Shown here: one piece after another, positions 14,575 to 51,784 of the stretch
Position numbering within the stretch: the first letter of the stretch is position 1
Layout of the letters: every line of letters begins with the position of its first letter
From: Synechococcus sp. AG-683-C23
GTDB taxonomy: Bacteria; Cyanobacteriota; Cyanobacteriia; PCC-6307; Cyanobiaceae
Direction: 5' to 3'
DNA length: 51,784 nucleotides
Assembly: GCA_003208835.1 (NCBI GenBank)
Contig: QCVD01000014.1
Location: 1 to 51,784 of the forward strand
Position numbers and translations under genes: made by a program
Notes under the pieces: generated by a model
What the model was told of the DNA's origin: nothing
What the model saw: the letters and a program-made list of their open reading frames with translations, nothing else
The model's database searches: none

Positions 14575-15620
14575 GTTCCGCGTAGATCTTGCTGGACGTT
14601 GCTGTTGGTGTTGTTTATGGCATTGGCTTGGTGGTGGCGTAACCAAGGTCGTCTTGTTCCCTATGCCACAGCTGTGGCCCTGACCTCACTTACGCATTTT
14701 TATGGTCTGTCTTTGATGTTGGCTGCTGGGGCCTGGGACGGTTCGCGCAGTCGCTGCGGTTTGTTGTTGTCTGGCGGCTTGGGGACGATTCTCGCACTGG
14801 CTTGGATGGTCTATGCCTCGGACTATCTATTCAGTACCAAGGCTGGTAGCTGGATTGGCTGTCCAAGCTTTGCGTTGTTGGAGGACATCTTGGCTCCTGG
14901 GCTTGGCGTTTGGCCTCTGCCCAAGTTGGCCTTGCTGTTGCTCATGCTTGTCACCCTGCATCGTTGGTGTGGTCTGAAGCCAGTGCGTTGGTTCGATGCT
15001 GACATGTGAGATAGCAGTGGTGTGATCCCTCGATCTTGATGGTGGTTGGCGTGGTACTGATCGGATTTTTCAAGCTCCTCGCCTTCAGTCGTTATTTCGT
15101 CGTGCTGATTCCGGCCCTTGTTTCTGTTTGGCCGTTCTGTTCGGGAATGCCCAGTTGGTTCGCGGGGGGCGCTTTCTTCCGGGGCTGTTTTGGTGATTGT
15201 GATCTCCAGTTGGTGGTGGCCAGGGTTTGCTGAACTCGATCCGGGCTTGGGCGGGGTGCGTGAACAGGATCAGTTCCGAATGTTGAGCCGGCAAACCGAT
15301 GGATTCTCTGAGCGGTTTAGCCCTCGAGCATCCTTGCTCAACCTCAGTGATCGGATGGATCAGGAAATGGGCCGAGTGCCTGCTGCCGTGACTGCATGGG
15401 GAGATCGCAGTGCCTTGCGCCAACGTTTATTGATCACCCCACAACCGTCCGTGATCTGGTTGGCAAGTAGTGGCCCGAACAAGCGCTTCGGCGCAAACTC
15501 AATCCGTTGCAGCAGGAGGTTGAGCATGTGGGCTATCGCGGTGTCGACCGTTCTGAAGGGCTTAGCCATGGCCGGATCCTGCAGTGCCAACTTGAATCCA
15601 AGCCGAATCCTTCGCTGTAA
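14575..15620 (+). pseudogene. Decayed membrane glycosyltransferase (mannosyltransferase-like)
   Basis: Fragments in several frames line up into one membrane protein. One runs from about 14587 to 15009 (hydrophobic, with HFYGLSLMLAAG and LLLLMLVTLHRW). The next, near 15036-15110, reads VLIGFFKLLAFSRYFVVLIP. Later come WPGFAELDPGLGGVREQDQF and PQPSVIWLASSG, and finally EQALRRKLNPLQQEVEHVG, ending in TAA at 15618-15620. The pattern fits a polytopic sugar transferase of the GT39/ArnT kind. The N-terminal half is missing, and at least three frameshifts and several stops are present. The relic overlaps the 3' end of the convergent SelD fusion gene by 59 bases. Confidence 0.75.
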
Positions 15621-36786: not shown

Positions 36787-38899
36787 CTATATCGTACTAA
36801 TTGCGTCTATGGCGATCGATGCAATGGCTTGATCGCTGGCCTTAGGAAGTTGAACGTATTTGCCGCCGGCAGCTTCGGCGAGGTCTTTGCCCATGCCGCT
36901 ACCGATGAATTTGCGTTCGGTGTCGATTACCAACAGCTTGATGCCCAGCATCCGATAACGGCATGCAACATCCAGCACCTCCTGCTTTAAATCGGGCTTG
37001 TCTTCCCCGTCCAGTTCGGGTTGGCCCAGCGACTTGCTGAGCGGGACATTTCCCCGACCGTCGGTAATGGCCACCACCACGACTTGGCCGAGATCTCCTG
37101 TGGCCAGGGCATTAGCACCCACCCTGGCTGCTTGGGTGAGTCCGTGAGCGAGCGGTGAACCGCCACCGCAGGGCATGGATTCAAGGCGACGCCGAGCGGC
37201 GGTGATCGAACGCGTTGGCGGCAATAGCACCTCAGCTTGGTCGCCTCGAAAGGGAATCAGCGCTACTTCATCCCGGTTTTTATAGGCTTCGGTGAGCAGT
37301 CGGATCACGGCTCCTTTGGCGCTTTGCATGCGGTTGAGGGCCATCGAACCACTGGCATCGACCAGGAACACCACCAGGGCGCCAGCTTTGCGCTGCAACA
37401 GTTTGGCGCGCAAATCGCCTTCCTCCACGATCACAGCACGGCCCGGCTGTCGCTCACGCCGCACTTTTTGGTAAGGGGCCGCTGCCCGGAGGGTTGCATC
37501 CACTGCAATTCGGCGGACGGGGCCTCGGGGCAGCATCGGCTTGACGTAGCGGCCTCGGCTGTCGCTCAACACCACCGAGCGGCTGCCGCTGTTGCCGGCT
37601 TTGCTTTTGGCTGCATTGAACAGGAGCAAATCTGGATCCACATCAATCGCTTCTGGATCGAGCATGAATTCTTCGGGAACGGATGGAGGGGCTTGGTCCT
37701 CTGGACTGTCGTCGTCCTCGCTCTTGTCGTCGTCAGAATTGTCCTCTGAGTTGTTGTCGTCAGGAGTGTCGTCATCCTCTCCAGAGCCTTCGGGAGGTGG
37801 AGGCGGATTGTCCTGCTGATCGTCCTGATCTCCCTGGGACGGTGGGGGGTCTTGCTTCTGTGGTGGAGGTGGCTCCATCTGCTGATCCGATGGAGGCAGC
37901 TGTGATGCCCGCGGGGCGATCACCAGCGCAACAGCTACTTGAAGGTCGTCTGCGTCCACCCGGTCTCTGCCGCTTAGGGCAGCGTGGGCTCGAGCGACGC
38001 GTACGGCGTACAGCTCAGAACGGTGGCCTTCCACCCCGCCACGGATCGCTTCGGTCACTAAGTAGACGATTTGCTCACGGCTGATTTGCACATCCGGCAA
38101 CCACTGACGGGCAAGCAGCAATTGGGTGGCGAGAGCATCGGTTTCTTCTCTCCAGGTTTCGGCAAAGCTGCGGCTGCATTGACCGTGGGCTAATGCGGCA
38201 TTGGTGATCTCCACCCGTTGCTCGGTGGTCACCAGCTGATTAGCCGAAAGAGCGATGGCAAAGCGATCGAGCAGGTGATCGCGAATGTTGCCTTCTTCGG
38301 GGTTGTAGGTGGCGATTAGCAGTGGCCGGCAAGGGTGGCTGAGGCTGAGACCTTCCCGCTCTACGCGGTTCTCTCCGCTGCCAACGGCCGCCAGCATCAA
38401 ATTCACGATGCCGTCATCGAGAAGATTGAGTTCGTCCACATAGAGCACTCCCCGGTGTGCATCGGCGAGGAGGCCCGGCTGGAAGACAGCACTGCCACTC
38501 GACAGCGAGGCGGCCACATCCACGGCGCCCACGAGACGGTCTTCGGTGATGCCGAGGGGGAGTTGCACAAACGGTGCCGGAATCACTTTGGAGGGGGGAT
38601 CGCCTGAGATCTGTTCACAGGTGGCGTTGTCCCATTCCTCTCGATTGAGGGGATCGAGGTTGCGGCCGACCCCCCCCCTCAATGTCGAGGATGTCGATCG
38701 GGGGGAGCAGGGTGTGAAGTCCACGGGCCAACACGGATTTACCGGTGCCGCGCCCTCCTGCAATCACCACGCCGCCGAGGCCGGGGTCTACTGCTGCCAA
38801 CAGAAGTGCAAGCTTGAGCGTTCCATGGCCGGTGATGGCCGCCAAGGGAAAGGCACGGGTTGCTTGGTCGTTCTTTGCGACTACACCACTTGCCACCAT
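36787..38899 (-). CDS. chlD: Magnesium chelatase subunit D, with an apparent frameshift
   Basis: ChlD is split into two frames here. From ATG 38899 the N-terminus ([38 protein letters not shown]) runs to a nine-C run at 38670-38678 (nine G in the mRNA). After it the frame changes to [13 protein letters not shown] and continues to 36787, about 700 residues in all, the normal ChlD length. Eight G would join the two. The rest has an AAA+ region, an acidic Pro-rich linker (about 325-410) and a C-terminal integrin I domain with [11 protein letters not shown]. ChlD works with ChlI and ChlH to insert magnesium into protoporphyrin for chlorophyll. A sequencing slip, a real mutation or slippage during transcription could each explain it. 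Confidence 0.9.
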
Positions 38900-50346: not shown

Positions 50347-50395
50347 ACAAGGGGGGGGGGAGTGTCTCCTCTCTTTGTTTAAGACTCTTGTTTGA

Positions 50396-51784
50396 TTATT
50401 TGTTATCAATAATATCGATAAAGATGCCGTGCTCTTCCAGCAAATTATTTATTGTATTGTTCTTGATTGGCCTGTAATTAAACACCTCCCCCTCAATAAT
50501 AAGTTGGTCTTTTTTGCCGAAGTTATTAATAGCTAGCTTTTTCTTTATTAGATCATAGGATTCGATGGTCGTTATGTCCTTTTTCCTGTCATTTCCATTG
50601 TCGATGACCAGTGTTTTTACTGAGCCTTTGATGATGACAGAATCCTTGCCATTGCCAAGGCTAAAAGTATTCTTGCCAATTAATTTTGTTCCCTCCTCTA
50701 CTGTAATGAGCTCTTCTCCCTTTCCCCCATTGACCGCGCTAGATTTTAGTGTTGTATCTACAAACGTAATAGTATTGGTTCCTTTTTTGGCATTAATAGA
50801 TGCCCCAATATTTTTCGCATTTGATAGTGTTAGCGCTGAATTGTCTGTATGAATAAAAGTGAATATTGGTTTTGAAAGTTTTTTACCTTTAACATGAAAA
50901 TTATTTTTAATTTCAATTGTCATATTTTTTATTCCCGATTCCGCCGTAACAGTTGTTATTTGATCAACAATATTAATGCTGATATCTTTAGATTCAGTCG
51001 TCGAAACTTTTACGATCCCATTAAGTGTCTGGGTGACACCATCTTCTATAGCACTTTGGTCTGGAGCAGTGGCGGGAGAAGGTGAAGGAGCAGTGGCGGG
51101 AGAAGGAGCAGGTGAAGGTGAAGGAGCAGGGGCGGGAGAAGGAGCAGGTGAAGGTGAAGGAGCAGGTGAAGGAGCAGGTGAAGGAGCAGGTGAAGGTGAA
51201 GGAGCAGGTGAAGGTGAGGGAGCAGGGGCAGGAGTCTTCGTATTAACGGTGAAGGTGACGGTGTTATTGGCATCGGAACCGTCGCTGTTATCGGTATTGG
51301 CTTTATCAGTGAAGGTGCTACTAGTAACGGAGATCACCCCTTCGGCGGTGCTGTTGGCGGTGGGAGTGAAGGTGGCGGTGTAGGAGGTGGCAGATGCTGC
51401 GTTCCAGTTGGAGAGAGAACCACCGGAAACGGTGACATCGGACTGGATGAAGTTGGTGGAGGCTTTCGAGAGGGTGAAGGTGATGGTTGCTGTATTGCCC
51501 ACAGTGAGGACGTCATCGGCATCGTCTTCTGTGATGGCGATGGTGGGGGGAATGGGGTTGGCCGATGCATCGGTGCGAATGATTTGAGATGCAGCATCGA
51601 AGTCTCCAGCGTCGATGCCTTGCAGAAGAACTGAACCGAAGGAGGCGACGGAGATCAGCAGATCACTCCCGGATTGAGAGATGGAGTACTCCTGATCGGT
51701 CTGAATGCCGAGTCGATCACCCTGGGCGATAACGAAATCGGTGATTTGATCGGACCCTCTACTGAGCTGGAATTGATCAGCGCC
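50396..51784 (-). CDS. C-terminal part of a large secreted repeat protein (5' partial)
   Basis: The frame is open to the window edge, so only the last 462 residues are seen. From the edge inward, GADQFQLSRGSDQITDFVIAQGDRLGI in parts resembles the tail of RTX calcium-binding proteins. Next is an Ig-like domain (ITFTLSKASTNF, TATFTPTANST), then a linker of about 50 residues built from PAPSPSP repeats, and a beta-rich C-terminal region with many Asn, Lys and Ile. Such architecture is typical of type I secretion substrates and adhesins. The exporter at 19.5-23.6 kb is a candidate secretor, though far away. The C-terminal third is AT-rich. Confidence 0.8.
   Translation of the reverse strand, partial: GADQFQLSRGSDQITDFVIAQGDRLGIQTDQEYSISQSGSDLLISVASFGSVLLQGIDAGDFDAASQIIRTDASANPIPPTIAITEDDADDVLTVGNTATITFTLSKASTNFIQSDVTVSGGSLSNWNAASATSYTATFTPTANSTAEGVISVTSSTFTDKANTDNSDGSDANNTVTFTVNTKTPAPAPSPSPAPSPSPAPSPAPSPAPSPSPAPSPAPAPSPSPAPSPATAPSPSPATAPDQSAIEDGVTQTLNGIVKVSTTESKDISINIVDQITTVTAESGIKNMTIEIKNNFHVKGKKLSKPIFTFIHTDNSALTLSNAKNIGASINAKKGTNTITFVDTTLKSSAVNGGKGEELITVEEGTKLIGKNTFSLGNGKDSVIIKGSVKTLVIDNGNDRKKDITTIESYDLIKKKLAINNFGKKDQLIIEGEVFNYRPIKNNTINNLLEEHGIFIDIIDNK
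51052..51232 (-). repeat. PAPSPSP-encoding short tandem repeat
   Basis: Six- and twelve-base units (plus strand GGAGCAGGTGAA and GAAGGTGAAGGA variants) repeat imperfectly over about 180 bases, encoding alternating Pro-Ala-Pro-Ser and Pro-Ser-Pro units. The unit length keeps frame, so copy number can change without breaking the protein. Such tracts mutate by slippage and make flexible linkers. Confidence 0.85.

What the first reader, a model, noticed from the sequence alone, without database searches (positions are those of the whole stretch)
38660..38690. Nine-G tract splits chlD by one base
The N-terminal and C-terminal parts of ChlD lie in adjacent frames that meet exactly at a run of nine C on the plus strand (nine G in the mRNA). 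Eight G would join DIEGG to VGRNLDP without loss. Subunit D is needed for chlorophyll, so a null allele is unlikely in a living phototroph. Either this is a base-call or assembly slip, or the cell makes full protein by slippage on the G tract. If real, it could tune chelatase output.
Basis: partly seen in the sequence, partly recalled or inferred. Interest (0 to 1): 0.7.

Follow-up and report, generated by a model that had tools for sequence, protein, structure and literature searches.

The report
Homopolymer sequence error in chlD
The apparent break in this marine cyanobacterium's chlorophyll gene chlD is almost certainly one extra G in a run of Gs in an imperfect draft genome, not a new way of controlling the gene.

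Summary
On the minus strand chlD changes frame exactly at nine G (38670-38678). Eight G would read ...[12 protein letters not shown].... As it stands the frame ends after 94 codons.

The likeliest cause is a +1 error in a draft assembly. All 28 genus-mate loci that cover the junction have an unbroken frame and at most six G in a row there. Of 400 sampled family genomes only this one has the G-run motif searched for. Both halves look constrained: dN/dS 0 upstream, about 0.05 downstream.

The same kind of break recurs at long G runs in other genes of drafts: 9 of 85 runs of at least nine G, from 6 of 14 draft genus-mates, are Pfam-supported gene splits (prephenate dehydratase, mfd-type, HrcA and others), against 0 of 75 runs in 13 one-contig genomes. 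Two drafts of other genera have chlD itself broken, consistent with one extra G at other G runs.

Rescue in the cell has no support here: the known chlD programmed frameshift differs in site, signal and conservation, published RNA data found no insertions at G/C runs, and tRNA-Gly loops are normal. Raw reads would settle it.

The parts
38670..38678 (-). run of nine G in the chlD coding strand; one more than the frame allows
38681..38899 (-). 5' part of chlD upstream of the run, 73 codons, with the Walker A motif (GGRGTGKS; motif name recalled)
36787..38667 (-). 3' part of chlD (rest of AAA domain, lid, linker, VWA domain), 626 codons plus stop, in another frame
38615..38899 (-). frame as it literally stands: 94-aa truncated product plus stop

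Best explanation
The gene in the living cell is most likely an ordinary intact chlD whose coding strand has eight G at this place. The ninth G is a +1 length error at a long G run, introduced during DNA amplification, library preparation, base calling or assembly of an incomplete draft genome (77% complete, 81 contigs). Shown: the frame change, intact relatives, constraint on both halves, and an excess of the same kind of break at long G runs in draft genomes against one-contig genomes. Inferred: that this particular G is such an error, and which laboratory step made it.
For: 28 of 28 genus-mate loci that reach the junction have an uninterrupted frame, with at most six G in a row there. Only this genome of 400 sampled in the family has the G-run motif. 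dN/dS is 0 upstream and 0.055/0.050 downstream against the two nearest genomes, close to 0.042 between those two. Against 100-kb stretches of these two genomes the only other truly broken gene flagged in the window is a decayed glycosyltransferase-like remnant. Two further genes of this genome are split at long G runs: an SBP_bac_5 protein at G10 and a large repeat protein at G9 (frame continuity only). Among 85 runs of at least nine G in 14 draft genus-mates, 17 met a frame-split criterion and 9 of these are Pfam-supported, including prephenate dehydratase at an E-G-G stretch like that of chlD; among 75 such runs in 13 one-contig genomes 1 met the criterion and 0 were supported. Fisher p: 0.0036 for 9/85 vs 0/75; 0.030 for the 6 strictest cases; 0.016 counted by genome, 6 of 14 drafts vs 0 of 13. 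chlD itself is broken in drafts G158 and G337 at other G runs, consistent with one G too many. A single-cell assembly workflow for marine cyanobacteria quotes on average 3.0 indels per 100 kbp in benchmarks (PMC6122165, passage).
Against: No raw reads could be examined, and I do not know whether the genome is single-cell, metagenomic or other. Most of the 31 runs of at least eight G in this genome are not at recognised gene splits (three are), and 8 of 14 drafts had no supported split, so the error is not universal. The preference for one G too many is partly an effect of sampling runs of at least nine; the SBP gene of this genome fits the other direction. Three of the nine Pfam-supported splits (L241, L264, L267) are in two-domain families, where profile continuity is weaker proof. 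One single-cell benchmark reports fewest indels in Prochlorococcus and, for one amplification method, slightly more deletions, not insertions, in reads (PMC5519541, passages). G001 and G003 themselves have only 4 and 6 G here, so the original length of eight in this lineage is inferred from the frame, not seen in a close relative.
Confidence: 0.92

Rival explanations
1. Real nine-G null or phase-variant allele: the cell or strain sequenced truly carries nine G, a recent slip in a hypermutable eight-G run, and is a dead-end cell or part of an on/off switching population.
For: Eight G is long enough to slip in replication (general knowledge). Another lesion in this genome is in a large repeat protein, a class often phase-variable (recalled).
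Against: One chlD was found in this 77%-complete genome and it is needed for chlorophyll. No genus-mate locus of 28 has a run longer than six there. Breaks of the same kind hit unrelated housekeeping genes in other drafts but in none of 75 runs of one-contig genomes.
Confidence: 0.05
2. RNA polymerase slippage on the nine-G run: a share of transcripts has eight G and gives full-length ChlD, so output is tuned by the run.
For: Transcriptional slippage at runs of nine A or T is known in bacteria (PMC5009743 passage). In Buchnera over half of single-base transcription deletions were in homopolymeric tracts (PMC5574713 passage).
Against: In E. coli and Buchnera all homopolymer insertions were at A/T runs and the authors state that G and C runs are not prone to slippage; deletions, which would be needed here, were rarely at runs overall, and guanine was under-represented around them in E. 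coli (PMC5574713 passages). The run is not conserved.
Confidence: 0.015
3. Ribosomal +1 frameshifting at GGG GGG GGU, or a +1 suppressor tRNA-Gly, or a programmed frameshift of the known fs-chlD kind, makes the full protein.
For: Programmed frameshifting is described in chlD genes of many prokaryotes (PMC9227772), and low-level frameshifting on a run of seven G is known in a viral kinase gene (PMC5009743 passage).
Against: The shift would be at codon 77 of about 703; a short product of 94 aa is below the 250-500 aa used for small subunits (PMC9227772); an intact chlI is present; the site is not AT-rich; the downstream fold is no better than shuffles; tRNA-Gly CCC, TCC and GCC have seven-base anticodon loops; no relative seen has the signal.
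Confidence: 0.01
4. Split ChlD: the two pieces are made separately and assemble.
For: Both pieces keep coding constraint.
Against: The break is a short way after the Walker A segment, inside the first AAA module. Both sides stay aligned to the G001 protein up to the run. None of 28 genus-mate loci is split here.
Confidence: 0.005

Closest known systems
Homopolymer indel errors in single-cell and other draft genome assemblies (general indel figure in PMC6122165, passages read)
   Same: One-base length error at a long run breaking an otherwise conserved gene; the same kind of break seen at G runs in prephenate dehydratase, mfd-type, HrcA and other genes in draft genus-mates
   Different: Nothing found here that differs; raw reads not examined; the paper's figure is for indels in general, not for G runs
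fs-chlD programmed ribosomal frameshifting (PMC9227772, parts 1-3 of 4 read; the 2020 study it cites was not read)
   Same: Same gene, frame change inside it
   Different: Known cases make a small and a medium subunit from one gene, more often by -1 than +1 shifts, usually at AT-rich sites with a downstream structure, and across many taxa; here a base loss or +1 shift at nine G near the start, private to one draft, with chlI present
Bacterial transcriptional slippage at A9/T9, e.g. Thermus dnaX (PMC5009743, passage)
   Same: Nine-base homopolymer inside a gene
   Different: A/T runs, not G; PMC5574713 (passages) found no insertions at G/C runs

Membership tests
Draft-assembly homopolymer error | Lesion is one base in a homopolymer of an otherwise constrained gene | tested here: met
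Draft-assembly homopolymer error | Same lesion type found elsewhere in draft but not in finished genomes | tested here: met
   9 of 85 runs (6 of 14 drafts) vs 0 of 75 runs (13 one-contig genomes), Pfam-supported
Draft-assembly homopolymer error | Raw reads disagree with the consensus | not testable with these tools
   no reads available
fs-chlD programmed frameshift | Short product corresponds to a small (I) subunit of 250-500 aa | tested here: not met
   94 aa; size range from PMC9227772
fs-chlD programmed frameshift | AT-rich slippery site with downstream stimulatory structure (usual) | tested here: not met
   G9; fold z -0.38, 62 of 200 shuffles fold as well
fs-chlD programmed frameshift | Conserved in related genomes | tested here: not met
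   28 of 28 genus-mate loci in frame; motif in 1 of 400 sampled family genomes, the window's own
fs-chlD programmed frameshift | Substitutes for a separate chlI (typical, not universal) | tested here: not met
   chlI over the TIGR02030 cut-off at G000:C11:44399-45406
Transcriptional slippage | RNA heterogeneity at the run | not testable with these tools
   no RNA reads
+1 frameshift suppression by tRNA-Gly | tRNA-Gly with an enlarged anticodon loop (recalled) | tested here: inconclusive
   three tRNA-Gly genes drawn, each with a seven-base loop; but 30 of 37 tRNA matches were fetched as loci and the genome is 77% complete

The most novel reading that the evidence does not exclude
The nine-G run is real and a fraction of ChlD is made by loss of one G in the transcript or by +1 frameshifting, so that chelatase output depends on the length of a hypermutable run in a wild marine Synechococcus lineage.
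Probability: 0.02. Interest if true: 0.65.

Novelty: not a real feature. Interest (0 to 1): 0.08.

Why it matters
As biology it matters little. As a caution it is useful: in the draft cyanobacterial genomes examined, runs of nine or more G split conserved genes in 9 of 85 cases, so pseudogene counts, phase-variation claims and frameshift discoveries from such drafts need read-level checks. If the nine G were real, it would be a rare tunable switch on chlorophyll synthesis.

Tried and rejected
Tried and of little use: the search for related loci in genome contigs returned three loci, whose best protein identities are 89, 85 and 67%; its note says that records of the window's own genome may be left out. 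Exact 20- and 19-base patterns with nine and eight G in viral contigs found nothing. A scan for two ORFs meeting at a run flagged 8 of 31 runs in this genome, 2 of 26 in G001 and 5 of 26 in G003. I read the sequences of six of these fifteen places: L049 and L077 are splits; L054 (substrate-binding protein next to an ABC ATPase), L081, and L063/L106 (genes that look like egtB and egtD, names recalled; same order in G003) are ordinary gene borders. The other nine (L036, L062, L066, L075; L097; L109, L110, L117, L130) have short or overlapping frames and were not examined further. That scan missed chlD, whose 5' frame is 97 codons.

Of the 17 draft candidates, eight were not counted: L182 (two different families, neighbouring genes), L238 (Pfam match on one side only), L175 (RadA is intact in the frame as it stands), and L181, L193, L194, L197, L265 (no Pfam family on both sides; L181 and L194 are two runs in one gene stretch). 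Some of these may be real splits. The one candidate in complete genomes (L212, G17) has a DUF805 match on one side only and was not counted. The threshold gave three own candidates (L049, L054, L077) and missed chlD itself, whose locus was cut; chlD was judged. L054 and L077 were not scanned with Pfam.

Considered and rejected: programmed fs-chlD, transcriptional slippage, a suppressor tRNA, a split enzyme, a second intact copy (searches show one chlD in a 77%-complete genome), and general decay (the window has one really decayed gene for contrast).

Broken chlD in other drafts is not a census: one search matched 355 of 400 genomes at E <= 1e-100 but printed only part of its rows. I followed 17 genomes chosen for split or weak matches and inspected four at base level (G337, G201, G081, G158). 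G158 and G337 fit one G too many at a G run, G201 fits a one-base loss outside a long run, G081 has a gap of N.

Papers: PMC6122165, PMC5519541, PMC5574713, PMC5009743 seen as passages from term searches; PMC9227772 abstract, outline and parts 1-3 of 4; the other papers as listings only.

Full report
What was claimed.

The run is at 38670-38678, in the minus-strand gene. The frame from ATG 38899 gives 94 aa and stops. The remaining 626 codons lie in another frame without a stop. Pfam and NCBIfam place the two parts in consecutive positions of the same chelatase profiles. Eight G would give a reading like that of the relatives, [12 protein letters not shown].

Relatives. The genome is 1.91 Mb in 81 contigs, 77% complete. 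The genus search covered 34 genomes, its own included; 32 have a match to the chlD DNA, but in G017 and G018 only short matches of the kind that the chlI paralogue gives (my reading). Of the 30 loci returned, one is the window's own, one (L032) ends before the junction, and all 28 others have an unbroken frame through it, with two to six G in a row at the site. The nearest two, G001 (89% identity) and G003 (86%), have four and six. By its exact length G001 looks like Synechococcus sp. CC9902 (recalled; no call names it). A pattern search over 400 genomes drawn from the family found the G-run motif only in the window's own. So no relative examined carries the feature.

Constraint. Against G001 and G003, dN is 0 upstream of the run (157 non-synonymous sites), and dN/dS downstream is 0.055 and 0.050. 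Between G001 and G003 it is 0.042. The downstream codons have no stop. By contrast the window has one truly decayed gene, a glycosyltransferase-like remnant at about 14,600-15,611 with a lost 5' part and many stops and shifts. In tblastn of ORFs from 100 kb each of G001 and G003 against the window, the remnant and chlD were the only real breaks flagged; the other flagged pairs, in the folK-nudix stretch (gene names from my reading) and in the remnant itself, come from overlapping or antisense frames (my reading). Genes without a counterpart in those stretches were not tested.

Is it special to chlD? No. The genome has 31 runs of at least eight G, 14 of them of nine or more: 7.3 runs of nine or more per Mb, against 2.4 per Mb in 13 one-contig genus-mates and 3.4 in 14 drafts (from rounded sizes). 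Two other genes of this genome are split at such runs: an SBP_bac_5 protein (G10, profile 2-252 then 263-366) and a large repeat protein (G9, judged by frame continuity only).

Draft against complete genomes. I collected all runs of nine or more G in 14 draft genus-mates (53-89% complete, 60-150 contigs; 85 runs) and in 13 one-contig genus-mates (75 runs: 66, nine from G001 and G003), with up to about 1.5 kb on either side, less at contig ends. A script asked whether shortening the run by one or two bases gives a much longer frame: 17 of 85 in drafts, 1 of 75 in complete genomes. I scanned both sides of all 18 with Pfam. Nine draft cases are supported: L186 mfd-type domains, L201 prephenate dehydratase, L202 GH15, L241 MFS transporter, L260 HrcA, L264 outer membrane efflux protein, L266 alpha-amylase, L267 peroxidase, L272 FAD oxidoreductase. 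They come from six of the 14 drafts (G014, G015, G017, G018, G019, G032). Six are strict (one profile, or one ordered domain series, continued across the run); L241, L264 and L267 are two-domain families and weaker. The complete-genome case was not supported. Fisher p is 0.0036 for 9/85 against 0/75, 0.030 for the six strict cases, and 0.016 by genome, 6/14 against 0/13. L201 is striking: prephenate dehydratase broken at nine G at an E-G-G stretch coded like that of chlD here. All nine have one G too many by the best frame, but runs of at least nine were sampled, which favours that direction; the SBP gene of this genome fits one too few or two too many.

chlD in other drafts. In one search, 355 of 400 family genomes matched ChlD at E <= 1e-100, and the list of matches was cut. 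In the rows printed, apart from this genome (658) and one cut by a contig end (G031, 641), I saw no open frame under 700 aa. I followed 17 genomes with split or weak matches. Two incomplete drafts of other genera, G158 (74%) and G337 (69%), have chlD broken in a way that fits one extra G at other G runs (EAIRGGVEG and YNPEEGG); G201 fits a one-base loss elsewhere and G081 has a gap of N. Breaks at different places in different drafts are what homopolymer errors would give.

Mechanism. Most likely a +1 length error at a G run, fixed into the consensus of a draft. A published single-cell workflow for marine Prochlorococcus and Synechococcus reports on average 3.0 indels per 100 kbp against benchmark cultures (PMC6122165, passages). 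The benchmark paper itself saw fewest indels in Prochlorococcus and slightly more deletions in reads of one method (PMC5519541, passages), so it does not by itself predict an inserted G. Whether this genome was made that way is not known to me.

Rescue in the cell. Transcriptional slippage: in E. coli and Buchnera all homopolymer insertions were at A/T runs, and the authors state that G and C runs are not prone to slippage; deletions, which would be needed here, were rarely at runs overall, though over half of single-base deletions in Buchnera were (PMC5574713, passages). Ribosomal frameshifting: nine G needs +1; the 80 nt downstream fold no better than shuffles (z -0.38); the three tRNA-Gly genes found have seven-base anticodon loops. 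Known chlD recoding (fs-chlD; PMC9227772, parts 1-3 of 4 read) makes a small subunit (250-500 aa in that paper's criteria) and a medium subunit from one gene, usually at AT-rich sites with a downstream structure, and the paper calls the signal highly conserved; it treats cyanobacteria as having chlI and chlD genes. Here the short product is 94 aa, the site is G-only, no relative examined shares it, and chlI is intact elsewhere in the genome. So this is not a member of that class and does not look as if it works like it. A paper search for cyanobacteria, phase variation, homopolymeric and chlorophyll together found none, and one for chlD, frameshift and magnesium chelatase found 19 papers, of which I read the fs-chlD one.

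Verdict. A true observation with an ordinary cause. Confidence 0.92 in a sequence error; interest 0.08.

Noticed in passing
window 14600-15611 (+): Remnant of a glycosyltransferase-like gene (492-codon frame in G001; function name is my reading) with the first ~150 residues lost and several stops and frame changes, right behind another gene; a real pseudogene.
   Followed up: partly
L049 (G000:C11 near 37932): ABC substrate-binding protein (SBP_bac_5) split at a run of ten G.
   Followed up: yes
L077 (G000:C48 near 2435): Large repeat-rich protein (adhesin-like) with frame change at nine G, and a long SPSPSP stretch; could be phase-variable or another homopolymer error.
   Followed up: partly
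window 50351-50360 (+): Run of ten G about 35 bases beyond the end of the minus-strand ORF 50396-51502.
   Followed up: no
L201 (G014), L186 (G032), L260 (G017): Prephenate dehydratase, mfd-type and HrcA genes split at nine or ten G in draft genus-mates; the first at an E-G-G stretch coded like that of chlD.
   Followed up: yes
G158 and G337 (L150, L146): chlD broken in two drafts of other genera of the family, fitting one extra G at other G runs.
   Followed up: yes
whole genome G000: Density of runs of nine or more G is 7.3 per Mb, above the 13 complete genus-mates counted (0.4-3.9) and the 14 drafts (0-6.5); cause not known.
   Followed up: partly
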